A stretch of 55,010 nt of DNA from Rickettsiales bacterium. GTDB lineage: Bacteria; Pseudomonadota; Alphaproteobacteria; Rickettsiales; UBA8987. Location of the stretch: the NCBI GenBank assembly GCA_033762595.1, contig JANRLM010000028.1, positions 1 through 55,010 of the forward strand. The letters are read 5' to 3'. The notes beneath the pieces are model-generated. The model ran no database searches. It was not told the DNA's origin and saw only the letters and a program-made list of their open reading frames with translations. The position numbers were made by a program, and so were the translations under genes. Shown piece after piece: positions 11,415-22,304 of the stretch (position 1 is its first letter; each line of letters begins with the position of its first letter).

Positions 11415-13814
11415 ATGTTAAAATTTACAAGAAGAAAAGCCTTAAAATCTGCGATATGTGCTACTGAAATTAGCCAAACTAAATTTATTCCCTATAAAGG
11501 TCACTGGGACGAAAATATTGTTATCACAAAGAAAAATGAAATGCTTTTGACTATTAAAGTTGAAGGGTTTTCATTTGAAACCGCTGATGATGAAGATTTA
11601 GACATCAAAAAAACAATTCTAAACACTCTTTTCAAATCTATTTCAGGTGGTAATTACGCAATTTACATTCACACCGTTAGAAAGAGAGATTATACCGAAT
11701 TAGAAGGCGATTTTAATAATAATTTCTGCAAAGAATTAAATGAAAAATGGAAAGAGAAACACAAAACAAAAGTTAGCTTCAAGAATGATTTATATATAAC
11801 AATCGTTCATAAAGAGGATAAAGAGGGAACGGTTTCAATGTCCGTGGGTTTGATAAATAAACTCAATCAAGCCGCAGATAAATCTCAAGCGGATTTAGTT
11901 TTAAGAGAAGCCGCAAAATCATTAAAAGAAATAGCCAGCAGGTTAGTTGGCTCACTAAAAAGCTATAAAGCAAAATTACTAGGAATTAGAAGGGAAGAAA
12001 GGGGATATTTCTCAGAAGTATTTGAATTTTTAGGATTAGTACTAAATGCAGGAACTCCTTCAAATATGTTAGTTCCAGCGGTTAATGCAGATAGATACCT
12101 TTCAAAAAATCGTGTTTATTTTGGTAAAAGAGCCATAGAAATTCGTGATGAAAAGGGCAGAAGCAAATTCGGTGGTGCAGTTTCTATTAAGGAATACCCA
12201 CCATATACACACGCAGGTATGTTTGATTCCCTTCTGCATTTACCTTATGAAATGGTAATAACGCACGCTTTTTATTTCAGTAATCGCTCATCTGCAATAA
12301 CTTCAATGCAGCTTCACCAAAACCGAATGAGAAGTGCGGGCGATAAAGCAATTTCGCAGATGGAACATCTTACCATCGCGATGGATATGGCACAATCTGG
12401 TGAGATTGCATTCGGCAGACATCATATGAGTGTGTTTGTATATACAAATAATTTGGAAGATTTGGATATGCAGGTTTCAGAGGTTTATTCTGAGCTTGTA
12501 AATGTGAATGTTTCACCGATTAGAGAAACCTTTACCCTACAAGGCTCATTTTGGGCACAACTTCCTTGTAATTATGATTTTATTGCGAGGCCTTCGGTTA
12601 TAAACACATTCAACTTAGTGGGAATGTGCCCACTGCATAATTACCCATATGGCAAGCCGAAGAACAATCATTGGGGGCCAGCTGTTACGCAATTAGATAC
12701 AACTTCTGGCACACCATTTTATTTTAACTTCCATGTTAGAGATGTTGGTCACACTATGATAATTGGCCCAACAGGTGCTGGTAAAACGGTTTTATTAGGT
12801 TTTCTTGCGGCTCAAGCACAGAAATTTAAGCCCGATATGTTCTTCTTTGACAAAGATAGAGGTGCTGAAATTTTAGTACGAGCAATTGGTGGCAGTTTTA
12901 CGATCTTAGACCCATCAGGCAAAATGGGTTTTAACCCTCTACAACTTGAAGAAACTTCAGAAAATAAAGAGTTTTTAATAGATTGGCTTTCTGCTTTATG
13001 CTCAGAATCAGGTAAATATGATATTTCGCCTGAAGAAAGGGAAAGAATTGTTGAAGCCATAAACGGCAATTATAAACTCCCTAAAAAAGATAGGGTGCTT
13101 AGAAATATCGTTCCGTTTTTGGGGCTAGAAAAACCGGGGTCAATCGCAAGCAGGGTTCGCATTTGGCATAGCGGAGAGGCTAGGGCAGGGGTGTTTGATA
13201 ATGATGAAGATTCACTTTCATTCAGCGGTAAAAAAACTCATGGGTTTGAAATGGCGCCAGTGCTTGAATCTCCAGAAACATTGGGGCCAGTGCTTATGTA
13301 TATTTTCCACCGAATTAATATGACGCTCACTGGCTCACCAACAATGATTATTTTAGATGAGGCTTGGGCTTTACTTGATAATAAAGTTTTCGCACCAAGA
13401 ATTAAAAACTGGCTGAAAGTTCTAAGAAAATTAAATGGTATGGTAATTTTCGCAACGCAATCACCGGAAGATATCTCAAAATCACAAATTAGTGAAACAC
13501 TTGTTCAGCAAACCTCAACGCAGATTTTCTTAGCGAATATGAAGGGAACTTCAATCTATCAAGATGTATTTAAGCTCTCAAATCGTGAATTTGCAATTAT
13601 TAAATATACGGACCCCGGCTCAAGATATTTCCTAGTAAAACAAGGTGAGGATTCAGTTGTCGCAAGAATAGATTTATCTGGAATGAATGAACTGATTGAA
13701 GTTCTTTCCGCAAGGGCAGATACAATCCGTATATTAGATAAAATAAGAGCAGAAGTTGGTGATGATCCAGATAAATGGCTACCAATTTTTAAGAAGGAAG
13801 TTGTTAAATCATAG
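11415..13814 (+). CDS. virB4: Type IV secretion ATPase VirB4
   Basis: A 799-residue CagE/TrbE/VirB4 ATPase, close to the size of Rickettsiales VirB4. The N-terminal domain contains the conserved KRAIEIRDEKG and MRSAGDKAISQMEHL stretches. The C-terminal ATPase has Walker A GPTGAGKT (451-458), FFFDKDRGAEI, Walker B MIILDEAW (D648, E649) and FATQSPEDISKS. It powers substrate transfer and pilus or channel assembly at the inner membrane. A 31-bp repeat-family remnant follows the stop before virB6-1. Confidence 0.96.
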   Translation: MLKFTRRKALKSAICATEISQTKFIPYKGHWDENIVITKKNEMLLTIKVEGFSFETADDEDLDIKKTILNTLFKSISGGNYAIYIHTVRKRDYTELEGDFNNNFCKELNEKWKEKHKTKVSFKNDLYITIVHKEDKEGTVSMSVGLINKLNQAADKSQADLVLREAAKSLKEIASRLVGSLKSYKAKLLGIRREERGYFSEVFEFLGLVLNAGTPSNMLVPAVNADRYLSKNRVYFGKRAIEIRDEKGRSKFGGAVSIKEYPPYTHAGMFDSLLHLPYEMVITHAFYFSNRSSAITSMQLHQNRMRSAGDKAISQMEHLTIAMDMAQSGEIAFGRHHMSVFVYTNNLEDLDMQVSEVYSELVNVNVSPIRETFTLQGSFWAQLPCNYDFIARPSVINTFNLVGMCPLHNYPYGKPKNNHWGPAVTQLDTTSGTPFYFNFHVRDVGHTMIIGPTGAGKTVLLGFLAAQAQKFKPDMFFFDKDRGAEILVRAIGGSFTILDPSGKMGFNPLQLEETSENKEFLIDWLSALCSESGKYDISPEERERIVEAINGNYKLPKKDRVLRNIVPFLGLEKPGSIASRVRIWHSGEARAGVFDNDEDSLSFSGKKTHGFEMAPVLESPETLGPVLMYIFHRINMTLTGSPTMIILDEAWALLDNKVFAPRIKNWLKVLRKLNGMVIFATQSPEDISKSQISETLVQQTSTQIFLANMKGTSIYQDVFKLSNREFAIIKYTDPGSRYFLVKQGEDSVVARIDLSGMNELIEVLSARADTIRILDKIRAEVGDDPDKWLPIFKKEVVKS

Positions 13815-13845
13815 GGTGTTAGGGTTTGGGAATTAGGTTCTAGGG
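13815..13845. repeat. GTTAGG/TTGGGAATT repeat-family remnant
   Basis: The bases directly after the virB4 stop, GGTGTTAGGGTTTGGGAATT and on, resemble the left arm of the palindrome at 27961-28025 (GTGTTGGTAGTTGGGAATTG) and the tract at 18711-18734. It appears to be a single arm, with no inverted partner in the spacer. Confidence 0.5.
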
Positions 13846-13878
13846 ATAAAATAACGAAGGAAAAACAAACAAAAATAA

Positions 13879-15816
13879 ATGCTAAAGGGATTAAAAATAA
13901 CTATCATTTTATTCTTTATAATATTTGCGAATTTTTCAAATGTTGAGATTGCAAATTCTTTGCCATTTGGAAATGACGGAAGGGTAAAAGGTGAGGCTAT
14001 CGGCTGTAATTTTTACCCCGGTTTTGTAAACAAAATTGTTCAATGCATTACAAACCAAACCACTTACGGCCTTGTTACAAATGCACTAAACAGAATGCAT
14101 AGTTTTTTTGTCGCAACTGGTAATTCTTTAGTAGTGATTTACATAATGTCTTTCGCAATGAAACTCAGTTTGCAAGGCGTTAAAGAGCTTAAGAAAGAAG
14201 TTGCGATAGTTGCACTAACCGCAGTTGGTGTAATTACGCTAAACAGCACAACAAGTATAACAAAATTTATGAATTTCTTTATTAAAGGGCAAGAGGAATT
14301 TGTAAATGTAACCACAACTGCAATGTCAACAAGGCGCGCTAATGAAACAGAAAGGGGCATTAGAAGCAGTGATTTTTTGTGTTATCAAAGTCAAGCAGGA
14401 CAAAAATATAATATTTGGCAAAGGATTGATTGCGTAATTGGCTATATTCTAGGCGTTCACCCACTTGTAAAATACACAGAAAAGCATGTGTCTTGTGATA
14501 AAAAATTTGATCCAACAATGGGCGTGGATTTAACTGACCCTGATTTATCCTCCGATGAGCAAAAACTAAACCTAACAGCACGGCCAAAAATTGGTTGTTA
14601 TGATTACAGCTTATTTGCTGGCGATAAAAACCCCTTTGCCGATATGGCATCTGACCCGTTTTCCTTTATGCAAGATACTGGAAAAGTAACTGATAAATTT
14701 GAAGTTGGTGTGTCGTTTTCATTTATCGTGATGATTGTTCTAATGCTATTTAGTGAAGATTTTGGGATAATTTTAATGGTTACAGGCTTATTTATTGTAA
14801 TTATTCTAATAATGGCTTTTGGGCAGGCGGTTTTAATATATGTAACCTCATTATTTACAATTCTAGTTCTTGGACTTTTTGCACCTATAGTTATACCGCT
14901 TTTTTTATTCAAAACGACCAATCAGATATTCACATCTTGGCTTCAAATGTTCTTCTCAGCGATGCTAACCCCTGGGCTAATGTTTGCCTATTTAAGTTTT
15001 ATGATTCTAACCTTGCAATATGTTCTTAACTACGAAACCACCGTTAATGGTGAGCAAGTTAGCATTATGACTTATCATTTTGGCGATAAATATATTAACG
15101 CTAAAAAAGATTATAAAGACGCCATGACAGTTACAAAGAATTTAAGCTCTGAGGAACAACTAAACGCAGATAATTGGCGAAAAGTTATTGAGGAAACCAT
15201 CAGAACCCGTGTTGAAATTAGAGATAGAGATAAAAATGTTGAAACCGATATGTTGAGAGATGAATCTCAATTCACTAAAGATGCACCAAGGCTAATTGCA
15301 GAAGGAAGAGCAAGAAATTCAGGAATTTGGGAGAGTATGTCTGGCGTGTTTTCAAGAATGTCTTCAATGCAATCTGATAAAGTTAGAATGCCACATCTTG
15401 ATTTCCAAAACGCAGATGAGAAAATTAGAGAAATGTATAGTGCAAAAGGTTTAATAGAGCTTCTTCAAGAATCCCAATCCTTCCTCAGCATTCAAGAAAT
15501 AGCTAGATTTACCGAGCTTACAACCAAACTAAATGATCCTGAACAATGGTATAAATTTGTAAATGAATCACCCGCTATGAAAAATTTTATTGAAGGCAAG
15601 ATTGCTGGTTGGGAAAGGCAGGATTACCTTGATAAAACCGCTTATATGCAATTAATTATTGTTCTATTTTTGACCCTTTCAGTAACTTATAGCTTTATGA
15701 GTAATGTGCAGAATTTTGCCGCAAGGCTTTCAGGCGCTGGGCTTTCACCAGCAGAGAAAATGGTCAATTTATATAATATGAGCGTTAAAAGAATTACAGC
15801 TTCTTTCAAACAATGA
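13879..15816 (+). CDS. virB6: VirB6-family T4SS membrane protein, copy 1
   Basis: A 645-residue TrbL/VirB6 protein. It has an N-terminal hydrophobic signal-like segment, a cysteine-containing periplasmic stretch, and a membrane helix near 83-100. A helix block at about 270-385 (EDFGIILMVTGLFIVIILIM, AVLIYVTSLFTILVLGLFAP, then TSWLQMFFSAMLTPGLM) is the VirB6 core. A long hydrophilic C-terminal extension ends with one more membrane helix (near 595-615). Extended VirB6 proteins of this type are typical of Rickettsiales. The next virB6 overlaps by ATGA, showing translational coupling. Confidence 0.9.
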   Translation: MLKGLKITIILFFIIFANFSNVEIANSLPFGNDGRVKGEAIGCNFYPGFVNKIVQCITNQTTYGLVTNALNRMHSFFVATGNSLVVIYIMSFAMKLSLQGVKELKKEVAIVALTAVGVITLNSTTSITKFMNFFIKGQEEFVNVTTTAMSTRRANETERGIRSSDFLCYQSQAGQKYNIWQRIDCVIGYILGVHPLVKYTEKHVSCDKKFDPTMGVDLTDPDLSSDEQKLNLTARPKIGCYDYSLFAGDKNPFADMASDPFSFMQDTGKVTDKFEVGVSFSFIVMIVLMLFSEDFGIILMVTGLFIVIILIMAFGQAVLIYVTSLFTILVLGLFAPIVIPLFLFKTTNQIFTSWLQMFFSAMLTPGLMFAYLSFMILTLQYVLNYETTVNGEQVSIMTYHFGDKYINAKKDYKDAMTVTKNLSSEEQLNADNWRKVIEETIRTRVEIRDRDKNVETDMLRDESQFTKDAPRLIAEGRARNSGIWESMSGVFSRMSSMQSDKVRMPHLDFQNADEKIREMYSAKGLIELLQESQSFLSIQEIARFTELTTKLNDPEQWYKFVNESPAMKNFIEGKIAGWERQDYLDKTAYMQLIIVLFLTLSVTYSFMSNVQNFAARLSGAGLSPAEKMVNLYNMSVKRITASFKQ

Positions 15817-17267
15817 AAAATATTTTGAAAATATTTATCTTATTTTTATTCGCAATAATTTACTTGCCGAATAATTCTTATGCGGGACCACCGCCACCAA
15901 ATCCGAATGAAGAAAGAAGACTTAATTTTACTGATGTTTGCCAAAGCCCAGCAATCAAAAAGCCAAACAGAATCACTGGTAATGTTGTTAGGTGCATTGA
16001 GGTTTTAATCAATAATTCCGCAGATAGCATAATCGATAAATATATTGCAGGCTTTGCTACTTTTGTTTTTTATCTAACAATGATGGCGATTTTATTTTTC
16101 TCAATAAAAGCTATGTTTGGTCAGGTTTCAACAAGGTCTGTCTCATTAGTTTTTATATTCAAAGTCGCATTAGTTTTAAGCATTACTAGCCCGCAATCAG
16201 CGGATTACTTGAAAGGGGTTCGAGATACAATGGTAACTTCCCCCAAATATTTTTCAGTGGTGATATTAAATTCTATGTTAGAAAACCCAGTAGAAGTTAA
16301 TGATGAAGAATCAGTTAAAGTGGATATATTTGATACTTTTGATAAATATATCCTAAAACTTTTTGGGGTTGAAAATGCTGATCAAAAATTCCAAAGAGGT
16401 AACGCCTCAACCACCAAAGAGGAGTTTAATAAACAACGGCGAGAGGAATTATTCATTGGGCTTTTTGCATTAGTAGCAGGATTATTTTTTACTGGTGGGG
16501 TGGGGGCAACCATCACAACTATAGCACTTGGGTTTGTAACAACGCTTTTATTTGCAATGGCACAAGCGATTTTGTTTTATGCAACCATCACGATTGCACT
16601 TAATTTTCTTATAGCAATTTCACCACTTGCAGCAGTTGCTTTATTATTTGATCAATTCAAAAAAATTTCCTTTGTTTGGTTCACAAGTTTTATTGGTTAT
16701 GCCGTGCAACCTTTAATATTTGTATCGTTCTTAGGCCTTACCCTCCTTGTTTTAGATAAATTAACAACAAGAATTTCAGGGCCTTATGAAAAAGCAAGAA
16801 TACAATTTGAAAGAGGTGAAAATGGTGAAATAAAATTATTTGATTGCGGAAATTACAGAAAATCCGCTGATGAAAAAGCTGAAGATGCAAATAGTAATAC
16901 AGGTGATGCTGGGGAATCACAAAGGCAAGCAGAGGGTTTAGGCGGTGATGTTTCTTCAAAAAGTGAAGGCTGTAAATTCTATGCACCTAAACTAAAACTC
17001 GGTGAAGGCACAGGGCTTAATCATAATGATATTTCTGAGCTTTCAGGCAATCAGCTTGCCGTAATTTTCTTAATGATTGTAATGCTTGGTTTTATGAAGC
17101 AAATACCAGATATGATGAATAAAATAACCAGTGAAGCAATAGTTGCACCAGTTTCTGGTGTTGCGATTGGTGGTGGTCAAGGTGGCATCAATGAAAAACC
17201 AATACTTGCAACGCAGAAAATCTTAACAACTGGTAAAGATGTTATTCAGAGTGCAGTTAGGAAATGA
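15813..17267 (+). CDS. virB6: VirB6-family T4SS membrane protein, copy 2
   Basis: A 484-residue protein with a clear signal peptide (MKNILKIFILFLFAIIYLPNNSYA) and a short proline-rich start. It has membrane segments near 80-100, and the VirB6 core at about 213-310 (LFALVAGLFFTGGVGATITT, MAQAILFYATITIALNFLIA, WFTSFIGYAVQPLIFVSFLG). A low-complexity hydrophilic insert follows (about 335-390), then a last helix. It shares layout with copies 1 and 3 but little direct sequence identity by eye. It probably forms a distinct subunit of the inner-membrane channel. Confidence 0.88.
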   Translation: MKNILKIFILFLFAIIYLPNNSYAGPPPPNPNEERRLNFTDVCQSPAIKKPNRITGNVVRCIEVLINNSADSIIDKYIAGFATFVFYLTMMAILFFSIKAMFGQVSTRSVSLVFIFKVALVLSITSPQSADYLKGVRDTMVTSPKYFSVVILNSMLENPVEVNDEESVKVDIFDTFDKYILKLFGVENADQKFQRGNASTTKEEFNKQRREELFIGLFALVAGLFFTGGVGATITTIALGFVTTLLFAMAQAILFYATITIALNFLIAISPLAAVALLFDQFKKISFVWFTSFIGYAVQPLIFVSFLGLTLLVLDKLTTRISGPYEKARIQFERGENGEIKLFDCGNYRKSADEKAEDANSNTGDAGESQRQAEGLGGDVSSKSEGCKFYAPKLKLGEGTGLNHNDISELSGNQLAVIFLMIVMLGFMKQIPDMMNKITSEAIVAPVSGVAIGGGQGGINEKPILATQKILTTGKDVIQSAVRK

Positions 17268-17281
17268 AGAGGGCATAGAAA

Positions 17282-18691
17282 ATGAAAAATATTTATCAAA
17301 AAATAATGAGTAAAAATCTTTTTAGCATAACGAAGATTATTTTTCTGTGTTTATTCGCGGTAATTCTAAGTTCTTGTGCGGCAAGTGAGGGGGAGTTATC
17401 TGATGAAGATCTTAAAAAATGCACACCTTTTGATGAATTTTTCAAACTTAGCCAAAATGCTAGTTATAAGCCAATTGGCATTGATGTGAACGGCACTAGA
17501 GTTGGTATAATAAGTTGGCTCATAGATAATATAGATGATATCGTAACTGATGCTTCAAGAGAGATGTTCACCGCTATTTCTGAAGATGATGAATACCGCG
17601 CAATAATAGCAATATGTATCACGCTTACAATTATGTTTTATGCAGGCTCAATAATGCTCGGGCTTGCTCAATTATCGCCATATTCGGGCTTTATATTTAT
17701 TCTAAAAATAGTTTTTGTTTATAATTTTGCAGTCAATTGGGATTTCTTTTTGTTTTATGTGGTTGAAACGATAGAGGCTTTTATTAGCGATACGGTATCG
17801 CTTGCTTCAAAGACATTTACTGGCTTTGATGGCTTTAAAGAGGGGGATCTCGGCATAAGTGTTACAAGAATAACCATTATCGGTGAGATGGATAAAATGC
17901 TTAGTATATTATGGGATTTTAGAATGTTCAAAGTTGTTCTTGCTCTTGCATTTACTGGTATTACGGGTGCATTTTGGGGTTTGGCATTACTTGCTCTAAT
18001 TGTTATGTATTTACTTGCAGTTTTAGAGATTATAAAAATTTATCTTTTAGCTTTTATCGGCAGGTATGTTCTTTATGCATTAGGGCCTATATTCCTAACT
18101 TTCTTGCTATTTAACCAAACTAAATCCCTATTTAATGGTTGGATGAAAATGCTTATCAGCTTTGCATTACAGCCAGTATTTTTATTCATATTTGTTGGCT
18201 TGTTTATGTCTGTAATCGCAAGTTTTATGAATAGTATTTACATTGAAGATTTAAGAGACCCAGTTAGGCTCGTGCAGGGTGGTGGCCCATCTGGAAATGC
18301 ATTAACAATTCCAGCTAATGCATGTGTAAAATATGAAGTGCTTGAAGATACCCCTTTTGGTAAAATGAATTGGTGGCGAATCTGCACGCAGGTTTCAGCT
18401 GATGTAGTTGATTGTAAAACTGACGATTGGCTAAAATCAGCAATTGATTTAGATATTTGGATGTTACTCGCAAGTGTGATTATCTGCTACATGATGTTCT
18501 CAATGACAAGTTGGGTAGTTGGCGTTGCTGATTCACTGGCGGCAGGTGGTATGGCACTTTCTAACACGCAATTACAGGGCGTTCCACAAATTAAGAGTGC
18601 AATCACTGGCGGAATAGGGCAGGGCTTTAAGACCATGATGCAGAGTGCCGGTAAAGGGAATAGAACGCCTACAGGCGGAGGAGGTGGTTAG
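17282..18691 (+). CDS. virB6: VirB6-family T4SS membrane protein, copy 3, with lipoprotein-type signal
   Basis: A 469-residue VirB6-like protein. Its N-terminus ends in a lipobox (AVILSSC, Cys32), suggesting lipidation, which is unusual for a polytopic VirB6. The core at about 215-320 (FTGITGAFWGLALLALIVMY, GRYVLYALGPIFLTFLLFNQ, WMKMLISFALQPVFLFIFVG) matches the family. The C-terminus is glycine-rich after a last membrane helix. It starts 14 bp after copy 2; a second ATG at 17309 would still keep the lipobox. It is the last gene of the cluster; virB8-11 and virD4 are not in this window. Confidence 0.86.
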   Translation: MKNIYQKIMSKNLFSITKIIFLCLFAVILSSCAASEGELSDEDLKKCTPFDEFFKLSQNASYKPIGIDVNGTRVGIISWLIDNIDDIVTDASREMFTAISEDDEYRAIIAICITLTIMFYAGSIMLGLAQLSPYSGFIFILKIVFVYNFAVNWDFFLFYVVETIEAFISDTVSLASKTFTGFDGFKEGDLGISVTRITIIGEMDKMLSILWDFRMFKVVLALAFTGITGAFWGLALLALIVMYLLAVLEIIKIYLLAFIGRYVLYALGPIFLTFLLFNQTKSLFNGWMKMLISFALQPVFLFIFVGLFMSVIASFMNSIYIEDLRDPVRLVQGGGPSGNALTIPANACVKYEVLEDTPFGKMNWWRICTQVSADVVDCKTDDWLKSAIDLDIWMLLASVIICYMMFSMTSWVVGVADSLAAGGMALSNTQLQGVPQIKSAITGGIGQGFKTMMQSAGKGNRTPTGGGGG

Positions 18692-20280: not shown

Positions 20281-21537
20281 ATGTCAAAATATCAAGTTTT
20301 AGCGAGGAAATATCGCCCTAAAAAACTCTCCGAGCTTATCGGGCAAGATGCCCTTGTGCAAACAATTTCCAATGCAATTTCTCAGAATAGATTGCCGCAT
20401 GCTTTTGTTCTAACTGGTATTCGTGGCGTAGGTAAAACTTCAACCGCCCGAATTATCGCAAGATCTCTACTTTGCACAGGTGTTGATGATAAAAATGAAC
20501 TTCCAACCACTGAGCCTTGTGGGGTTTGTGCAAATTGTCAATCTATCTCAAATGATAATCACATCGATGTTATTGAAGTTGATGCCGCCAGCCGAACTGG
20601 AGTTGATGATATTCGTGAAATTATTGATCAAGTTTCCTACGCACCAGTAATGGGTAGATATAAAATTTACATCATCGATGAAGTTCACATGCTTTCAAAA
20701 AGTGCTTTCAACGCACTTCTCAAAACGCTTGAAGAACCGCCTTCGCATGTAAAATTTATCTTCGCAACTACTGAGGTAAGGAAAATTCCAGTTACAATTC
20801 TCTCTCGTTGTATGCGTTTTGATTTGCCGAGAGTTAAGGGCGAAACACTGATAAATCACTTCTCTAGAGTGGTTGAAGCTGAAAATGCCAAAGTTGATAT
20901 TGATGCAATTAGAGTTATTGCTGATGCCTCTGAAGGCTCTGTGCGTGATGGTCTTTCCTTGCTTGATCAAGCAATTGTAACCAATAATGGTGAGGAAGTT
21001 ACAGCTAAAAAAGTTAGGCAAATGCTTGGGCTTTCTGATAAAGATAATATCTTTTCTTTAGTTGAAAATTTGTTAGAAGGCAATTTTGAAGCCTCTCTTG
21101 AATTATCACAAAAAATTTATGATGAAGGTGCTGATGCGAATGTTATCATCAAAGATATGCTAGAGGTTACGCATAAATTAATGATGTATAAAGCAAGCCC
21201 TGCCCTGCTAAACCCTAAATTAATTAGTGAAGTAGAAATTACAAAAGCAAAACAAATTTTACAAAAAAACTCCCTGCCGAAATTAGGCAGAATGTGGCAG
21301 GTTATTAATAAGGCAATTGAAGAATCTAATTATTGCCCTAGCCCTTTAATGGCGTTGGAAATGTCTGTAGTTAGGTGTTGTTATACAGCAAAATTGCCAA
21401 CTCCAGAAGAAATTATCTCAGGTAAAGCAAGCATAAATTTTGCGACTAAAGAAGAAATTATTACGCCAACTGAAGCAGTTCAAGAACAAGAAGAAGAAAA
21501 TTTATTCGCTCAAAAAAAAAGCCTTCTGAACAGCTAG
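20281..21537 (+). CDS. dnaX: DnaX short product (gamma-like), frame-0 reading
   Basis: Frame-0 translation reads through CAA AAA AAA AGC and ends at TAG 21535-21537, eight residues after the start of the A run. It contains the complete ATPase (domains I-II) and the clamp-loader oligomerisation domain III, but lacks the DnaB/polymerase-binding region of tau. This is the same truncation logic as gamma in E. coli. Confidence 0.7.
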   Translation: MSKYQVLARKYRPKKLSELIGQDALVQTISNAISQNRLPHAFVLTGIRGVGKTSTARIIARSLLCTGVDDKNELPTTEPCGVCANCQSISNDNHIDVIEVDAASRTGVDDIREIIDQVSYAPVMGRYKIYIIDEVHMLSKSAFNALLKTLEEPPSHVKFIFATTEVRKIPVTILSRCMRFDLPRVKGETLINHFSRVVEAENAKVDIDAIRVIADASEGSVRDGLSLLDQAIVTNNGEEVTAKKVRQMLGLSDKDNIFSLVENLLEGNFEASLELSQKIYDEGADANVIIKDMLEVTHKLMMYKASPALLNPKLISEVEITKAKQILQKNSLPKLGRMWQVINKAIEESNYCPSPLMALEMSVVRCCYTAKLPTPEEIISGKASINFATKEEIITPTEAVQEQEEENLFAQKKSLLNS

Positions 21538-21941
21538 AAACCTCAGAAACTCTGGTAATTAAGGATTTTACCAATATTAATAATTTCTCTGAGGTTGTAA
21601 AAGCATTGCAAAATGCAGGTGAAAACCTTACGGCCTCTTGGGCGGAGAACCTTAAAATATCTAGCTTTTCAGCAAGTGATTTCAAAATTGAAGTTACTAA
21701 ACCAGTTGATTTTTCTATCATTACGCAAAAAGAATTTTTAGAGAAATTAAGGCAGGTTACTAATCAAAATTGGCAGGTTATTTACATAGATGAAATAGAG
21801 GCAAAAAGCGATGCGATTTCAATAAATCAGCAGAAAATTTTAGAGATTGAGAATAGAAAAAAACAGGCTATAAATAGCGATGCAATTCAAAATATTCTCA
21901 AAGAATTTGAAGGTGCAGAAATAATTTCAGTAGTGGCTTAA
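20281..21941 (+). CDS. dnaX: DNA polymerase III subunits gamma/tau; full-length tau needs a -1 shift at nine A's
   Basis: The clamp-loader ATPase. Walker A GIRGVGKT is at 46-53, the zinc ligands are C65, C80, C83 and C86, and the DEVH box is at 133-136. EEPPSHVKFIFATTEVRKIP and SRC-type arginine-finger sequences follow. In frame 0 the protein stops after 418 residues (see the separate short product). The sequence after 21511 continues in the -1 frame to 21941 with a tau-like C-terminal domain, giving about 553 residues. The switch is at C-A9-G. An alternative is a homopolymer sequencing error, but all E. coli and Thermus dnaX precedents make a programmed event credible. ybaB follows, the usual neighbour. 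Confidence 0.85.
21512..21548 (+). promoter_or_regulatory. Slippery A9 run with downstream stem in dnaX
   Basis: Nine consecutive A's (21512-21520) precede a TTCTGA/TCAGAA stem (21524-21529 with 21543-21548, 13-base loop) three bases downstream. A -1 ribosomal slip or a one-A insertion by RNA polymerase both give the tau frame. The E. coli-like upstream Shine-Dalgarno stimulator is not evident, only a purine-rich AAGAAGAAG tract. Confidence 0.6.
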
Positions 21942-21983: not shown

Positions 21984-22304
21984 ATGAATATAAATCAATT
22001 AATGAAGCAAGCACAGAATATGCAGAAAAAGCTTATGGAAGCTCAATCGCAAGTGGAAGAGATGGAAGTAAGCGGTGCTTCAGGTGGCGGTATGGTGAAA
22101 ATTACTATTAACGGCAAAGGCCACGCAAAATCTATTGAAATTGCACCAGAGCTTATAAACCCTAGTGAGAAAGATATTCTTGAAGATTTAATAATTGCTG
22201 CAATTAATGATGCAAATTCTAAAAAAGAAGATGAGGCCTCAAAAAGAATGGCTGATTTAACTGGCGGCTTACAACTTCCACCCGGCTTCAAAATGCCATT
22301 TTAG
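21984..22304 (+). CDS. ybaB: YbaB/EbfC family nucleoid-associated protein
   Basis: A 106-residue protein with the N-terminal helix MNINQLMKQAQNMQKKLMEA, the central GASGGGMVKITINGKGHAKS sheet and the C-terminal LTGGLQLPPGFKMPF motif, all standard for YbaB. It binds DNA as a dimer. It follows dnaX by about 40 bp, the conserved dnaX-ybaB(-recR) order; recR is not next here because a convergent small gene and the GIY-YIG cassette follow. Confidence 0.94.
   Translation: MNINQLMKQAQNMQKKLMEAQSQVEEMEVSGASGGGMVKITINGKGHAKSIEIAPELINPSEKDILEDLIIAAINDANSKKEDEASKRMADLTGGLQLPPGFKMPF

What the first reader, a model, noticed from the sequence alone, without database searches (positions are those of the whole stretch)
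21512..21548. Nine-A slippery run switches dnaX between short and long products
Frame 0 ends eight codons after the run starts, while a tau-like C-terminal domain of about 140 residues continues in the -1 frame to 21941. A stem (TTCTGA/TCAGAA) lies three bases after the run. A nine-A run is the length used for transcriptional slippage in Thermus dnaX, whereas E. coli uses A AAA AAG with ribosomal slippage. Either would give gamma and tau here.
Basis: partly seen in the sequence, partly recalled or inferred. Interest (0 to 1): 0.6.

Follow-up and report, generated by a model that had tools for sequence, protein, structure and literature searches.

The report
Split dnaX at poly-A slippage site
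A run of nine A's splits a bacterial DNA-replication gene into two reading frames, and comparison with relatives suggests the run is a slippery switch that lets one gene make both a short and a long clamp-loader protein.

Summary
dnaX (20281-21537) carries A9 at 21512-21520, and frame 0 stops at 21535. A complete tau C-terminal domain (PF12362, E 5e-10) continues in the -1 frame to 21941.

The run is not an isolated accident. Across 206 distinct alphaproteobacterial dnaX genes, A>=9 runs are about 49-fold enriched at the gamma/tau boundary. Usually two of the three frames then close within about six codons, leaving only the tau frame open. The same two-ORF layout occurs in all five sampled species of another genus (A9) and in two genera of a third family (A10). 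Two same-family relatives carry A10 or A9 in one tau-length ORF with both other frames closed.

Best explanation: transcriptional slippage makes both gamma and tau, with gamma the default here. A conserved E. coli-type signal is absent. Two-ORF poly-A dnaX is already described (Antonov 2013), so this is a new member of a known kind. New, as far as I found, are its recurrence in this order and the one-A change of default product between related lineages. In passing I found dnaX genes with an apparent +1 shift site, CCC_AGG_C. No reads or RNA were available.

The parts
20281..21537 (+). dnaX zero-frame ORF, gamma product, 418 aa, ending ...QKKSLLNS*
   Evidence: TIGR02397 E 8.8e-131; PF13177 and PF12169 domain III
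20998..21420 (+). DnaX domain III (PF12169), which ends about 90 nt before the run
   Evidence: residues 240-380
21512..21520 (+). A9 slippery run at the gamma/tau boundary
   Evidence: enrichment at this place in relatives
21527..21529 (+). TGA that closes the +1 frame two codons after the run
21535..21537 (+). TAG that closes frame 0 five codons after the run
21522..21941 (+). tau tail in the -1 frame, 139 residues and TAA
21579..21932 (+). PF12362 gamma/tau C-terminal domain, read in the -1 frame
   Evidence: tail residues 20-137, profile 2-114 of 114
21984..22304 (+). ybaB/ebfC gene downstream of dnaX
   Evidence: PF02575, TIGR00103

Best explanation
The A9 run is a functional slippage site that makes one dnaX gene yield two clamp-loader subunits. 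RNA polymerase slips on the nine A's and makes mRNAs with variable numbers of A. Transcripts with nine A's (or nine plus or minus multiples of three) stop five codons after the run and give gamma. Transcripts with one extra A (or two fewer) enter the tau frame and give full-length tau. The remaining frame stops after two codons and also gives a gamma-length product. Shown here: the layout, the intact tau domain, the boundary-specific enrichment of runs, the closure of the two non-tau frames, and conservation of the two-ORF layout in other lineages. Inferred: that slippage happens at RNA polymerase rather than at the ribosome, that it occurs in this organism, and that nine A's is the true genomic count.
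For: Complete PF12362 tail in the -1 frame. A>=9 runs: 32 in codons 365-430 against 5 elsewhere over 206 dnaX genes, about 49-fold per base; among Lys-Lys sites able to carry A9, 27 of 28 at the boundary do against 4 of 14 elsewhere, Fisher p 6.6e-6. After the run the second-nearest stop is within six codons in 92% of AT-rich genes (background 26%) and 50% at GC 0.40-0.60 (background 4-8%); closing both non-tau frames is what variable-length transcripts call for and -1 ribosomal shifting alone does not need. The same two-ORF layout in five species of f10 g16 (A9) and two genera of f28 (A10), with g16 tail dN/dS 0.14-0.32 in nine of ten pairs. Related single-ORF genes differ by one A: g91 GTA+A10 against g16 GTA+A9; G005 CAA+A10 against the window CAA+A9. 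A9 is strongly under-represented in the window, 2 against 33.8, as expected where A9 is slippage-prone (PMC1088944). Known precedents: Thermus A9 dnaX and two-ORF poly-A dnaX.
Against: No reads, RNA or protein data. No second genome of this genus was held. Two of four same-family relatives (G003, G004) lack an A>=9 run. Nine of the 30 run-bearing genes come from one genus, so the counts are not independent. Lys-rich linkers in AT-rich genomes favour A runs, which the Lys-Lys test corrects only in part. A9 scarcity can also reflect selection against replication slippage or simply codon usage.
Confidence: 0.7

Rival explanations
1. Assembly or sequencing error: the genome really has ten A's and dnaX is one uninterrupted tau ORF. 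The run would then be a Thermus-type site with tau as default product, so gamma and tau would still both be expected.
For: Homopolymers are where indel errors occur; the assembly is a 124-contig draft; G005 of the same family has A10 in the same codon phase and a single ORF.
Against: 22 other A/T runs of at least 9 inside ORFs of this genome keep frame and dnaX is the only one seen to break. Neighbouring genes match their profiles essentially end to end. The same split at the same place is conserved in seven other genomes from two families, so the layout is a real state in this order.
Confidence: 0.13
2. Ribosomal -1 frameshifting on A_AAA_AAA (E. coli-like) makes tau, without transcriptional slippage.
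For: CAA_AAA_AAA_AGC contains an A_AAA_AAA heptamer in frame 0 and the tau tail is in the -1 frame in every two-ORF poly-A case.
Against: No E. coli-type stimulators: no SD-like element before the run in the window and 7 of 30 in the set (background 14%); stem not above chance, set median z +0.44; base after the run C 13, T 12, G 5, so A_AAA_AAG is not conserved. The review states A_AAA_AAA is much less shift-prone than A_AAA_AAG in E. coli (PMC5009743). The +1 frame is closed too, which a -1 shift does not need.
Confidence: 0.12
3. tau is being lost: the run is a recent inactivating indel and only gamma is made.
For: Two families of the order have gamma-length dnaX with no tau tail in any frame examined (L027, L189-L191; L127, L128, L192), so tau can be lost.
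Against: The window's tail is open for 139 codons and matches the whole PF12362 profile. Where the same layout is old enough to compare, the tail is under purifying selection.
Confidence: 0.05

Closest known systems
Two-ORF poly-A dnaX genes (Antonov et al. 2013, PMC3711429)
   Same: dnaX in two ORFs with a -1 transition at a poly-A run, so that recoding is needed for tau; runs of 10, 9, 8 or 7 A's.
   Different: The genera named in the main text are Chlorobium and Chloroherpeton; the other species are in a supplement I could not read. This case is an uncultured alphaproteobacterium.
Thermus thermophilus dnaX transcriptional slippage (reviewed in PMC1088944, PMC5009743)
   Same: A9 near the tau-specific part; stops close by in the frames that do not give tau.
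   Different: In Thermus tau is the in-frame product and slippage gives gamma; here gamma is in frame and slippage gives tau. Slippage was measured in Thermus and not here.
Escherichia coli dnaX -1 ribosomal frameshift
   Same: One gene, gamma and tau, A-rich shift site at the boundary.
   Different: tau in frame; A_AAA_AAG with upstream SD and downstream stem, none of them conserved here.
Blochmannia dnaX homopolymer frameshift (PMC3017870)
   Same: dnaX frameshift in a poly-A tract in an AT-rich reduced genome, proposed to be rescued by transcriptional slippage.
   Different: There the break lies inside the tau-only region, downstream of the E. coli-type site; here it is at the gamma/tau boundary.
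Caulobacter crescentus DnaX processing by ClpXP (PMC5422525)
   Same: An alphaproteobacterium that makes gamma and tau from one gene.
   Different: gamma arises by proteolysis, not recoding.

Membership tests
Two-ORF poly-A dnaX class (Antonov 2013) | gamma part and tau tail in two adjacent ORFs with a -1 transition | tested here: met
Two-ORF poly-A dnaX class (Antonov 2013) | poly-A run (7-10 A's) at the transition | tested here: met
   A9 at 21512-21520
Two-ORF poly-A dnaX class (Antonov 2013) | arrangement conserved across related genes | tested here: met
   same layout in five g16 species and two f28 genomes of the order; not in the window's own family
Thermus-type transcriptional slippage dnaX | run of nine or more A's at the gamma/tau boundary with nearby stops in the frames that do not give tau | tested here: met
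   stops 2 and 5 codons after the run
Thermus-type transcriptional slippage dnaX | tau encoded in a single ORF | tested here: not met
   frame 0 ends at 21537; so it works like Thermus dnaX but is not the same arrangement
Thermus-type transcriptional slippage dnaX | mRNAs with variable A-run length | not testable with these tools
   no RNA data
E. coli-type dnaX ribosomal frameshift | A_AAA_AAG heptamer in frame 0 | tested here: not met
   frame 0 is CAA_AAA_AAA_AGC; set-wide the base after the run is C, T or G
E. coli-type dnaX ribosomal frameshift | upstream Shine-Dalgarno stimulator | tested here: not met
   none 3-18 nt upstream in the window; 7 of 30 in the set
E. coli-type dnaX ribosomal frameshift | stable downstream stem-loop | tested here: not met
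   a 6-bp stem, z -0.68 and -0.83; set median z +0.44

The most novel reading that the evidence does not exclude
In this alphaproteobacterial order the gamma/tau decision is set by a frame-neutral poly-A slippage site: single-A changes switch which product is the default without changing that both are made. Some lineages replaced it with a different device, a +1 ribosomal shift at CCC_AGG_C, which I did not find described for dnaX.
Probability: 0.5. Interest if true: 0.7.

Novelty: new member of a known kind. Interest (0 to 1): 0.5.

Why it matters
gamma and tau shape the bacterial replisome, yet how gamma is made differs between lineages: ribosomal frameshift in E. coli, transcriptional slippage in Thermus, proteolysis in Caulobacter. 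One order that holds single-ORF, split-ORF, apparently +1-shifted and tau-less dnaX side by side gives natural comparisons of how such a switch arises, flips and is lost. It also means that dnaX genes here may be annotated as truncated or as pseudogenes when they probably make both products.

Tried and rejected
Stem as stimulator: rejected, folds no better than shuffles. SD stimulator: none in the window. General homopolymer error in this assembly: not seen, 22 ORF-internal runs keep frame; a T10 run at G000:C56 looked like a second break but lies between the end of one gene and the start of the next (MiaA-like and CrcB-like by eye). Amino-acid composition alone as the cause of the runs: not sufficient by the Lys-Lys site comparison. 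Literature searches for a CCC_AGG site gave nothing relevant, and for Rickettsia dnaX slippage nothing. Rfam and tRNA scans of the window found nothing. The first, lax read of f15/f16 short dnaX as further split genes was dropped: no tau tail in the other frames.

Full report
WHAT IS THERE. dnaX starts at 20281 and its zero-frame ORF ends at 21537 (418 aa). It is DnaX by TIGR02397 (E 8.8e-131), PF13177 and domain III PF12169. An A9 run occupies 21512-21520. Frame 0 stops five codons after the run and the +1 frame after two; the -1 frame stays open for 140 codons and encodes a full-length PF12362 gamma/tau C-terminal domain (E 5.4e-10, above the curated cut-off). It aligns with the tau tails of same-family relatives. 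A ybaB/ebfC gene follows at 21984.

IS NINE A's REAL? The window lies in a 1.67 Mb, 124-contig assembly. I found 57 overlapping A9 matches in it and examined 46 distinct runs of A or T of at least 9. By my count of the output, 22 sit at least about 60 nt inside ORFs of 400 nt or more and keep frame; dnaX is the only gene seen to break at one. Neighbouring genes match their profiles essentially end to end (dGTPase, VirB4, AhcY, AspS, Dxr, BamA). This makes a general homopolymer error unlikely but does not replace reads. A9 is rare in the window: 2 found, 33.8 expected from shuffles. Baranov et al. (PMC1088944) take such avoidance as a sign that A9 is slippage-prone, though they note replication slippage could also cause it.

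RELATIVES. All four same-family genomes in which dnaX was found have single ORFs; two other family members gave no dnaX match. Two of the four carry a run at the boundary: G005 (A10, stops 5 and 2 codons away in the other frames) and G006 (A9, stops at 2 and 6). Across the order, the window's split layout recurs in all five sampled species of family f10 genus g16 (A9, zero-frame stop four codons later) and in two genera of f28 (A10). In each the tau tail is in the -1 frame. In g16, tail dN/dS is 0.14-0.32 for nine of ten pairs; the closest pair gives 0.73 on few substitutions. The f28 pair gives 0.52 at high divergence.

STATISTICS. Of 206 distinct alphaproteobacterial dnaX genes, 30 carry A>=9 in codons 365-430: 32 runs in 37.5 kb there, 5 in 290 kb elsewhere. 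Among Lys-Lys sites that could carry A9, 27 of 28 at the boundary do against 4 of 14 elsewhere (Fisher p 6.6e-6). The second-nearest stop lies within six codons in 92% of AT-rich run-bearing genes (background 26%) and in 50% of those at GC 0.40-0.60 (background 4-8%). Nine of the 30 genes are from one genus, so the counts are not independent; the boundary window was chosen after seeing the data. On a FastTree tree of 137 sequences the run changes state 12 times and the two-ORF state 4 times; many branches are weakly supported.

ONE-A DIFFERENCES. Genus g91 has GTA+A10 and one tau-length ORF; its sister in the tree, g16, has GTA+A9 and two ORFs. In the window's family, G005 has CAA+A10 and one ORF, the window CAA+A9 and two. 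So a single A can decide which product is the default, as Atkins et al. note is possible when recoding is near 50% (PMC5009743).

MECHANISM. Transcriptional slippage explains three things together: long uninterrupted runs, closure of both non-tau frames, and indifference to the codon phase of the run. A conserved E. coli-type ribosomal signal was looked for and not found: SD-like element in 7 of 30 (background 14%), median 3' folding z +0.44, base after the run C 13, T 12, G 5. Ribosomal slippage on A_AAA_AAA may add to it. Nothing here measures products. Even if the true count were ten A's, the gene would be a Thermus-type slippage gene, so the expectation of two products does not rest on the nine.

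COMPARISON WITH THE KNOWN. Antonov et al. 2013 described dnaX genes in two ORFs with poly-A and tau made by recoding (PMC3711429); the window meets those features. It works like Thermus dnaX with reversed polarity. Blochmannia dnaX breaks further downstream. In Caulobacter gamma comes from ClpXP processing. I found no report for Rickettsiales-like bacteria, within an open-access library and without supplements.

A SECOND DEVICE. Four distinct dnaX genes in three genera (L207 and L213; L206; L221; two also held as L187 and L188) have the tau tail in the +1 frame and no A run. Each has in-frame CCC_AGG_C a few codons before the zero-frame end. In 105 AT-rich dnaX genes in-frame CCC_AGG is expected 0.7 times; it occurs five times, all at codons 368-396. 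The fifth (L226) is a single ORF. The g107 tail pair has dN/dS 0.18, and two of the +1 tails match PF12362, just under the curated cut-off. The site resembles yeast Ty1 CUU_AGG_C (PMC5009743). This is a lead, not a demonstration.

Noticed in passing
L207 and L213 (f12 g107), L206 (f12 g118), L221 (f10 g83), dnaX codons 368-396: dnaX with the tau tail in the +1 frame, no A run, and in-frame CCC_AGG_C a few codons before the zero-frame stop: a candidate +1 frameshift site.
   Followed up: partly
L027, L189-L191 (f15); L127, L128, L192 (f16): Gamma-length dnaX with no tau tail found in the other frames downstream: tau appears to have been lost in these clades.
   Followed up: partly
L124, L130, L193-L197, L229, L235 (f12 g18): A9 or A10 at codons 389-425 in single-ORF tau genes with both other frames closed 2 and 4 codons after the run: a likely Thermus-type site in a genus that looks like Rickettsia (inferred).
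   Followed up: partly
L207 against L213, tau tail: L207 carries an insert of about 49 residues in the tail, in frame with the +1-frame tail, absent from its congener; it resembles a Rickettsia palindromic element by eye only.
   Followed up: no
L181 (G136, f23): dnaX ends at codon 402 and a tau-like tail lies in another frame without an A run; possibly a local deletion or assembly error.
   Followed up: no
G002 (same family as the window): A genome given as 99% complete in about 10 contigs shows no strong dnaX match, only a weak hit of 355 codons.
   Followed up: no
window 11415-18691: Type IV secretion genes: VirB4 and a TrbL/VirB6-family protein followed by further large ORFs.
   Followed up: no
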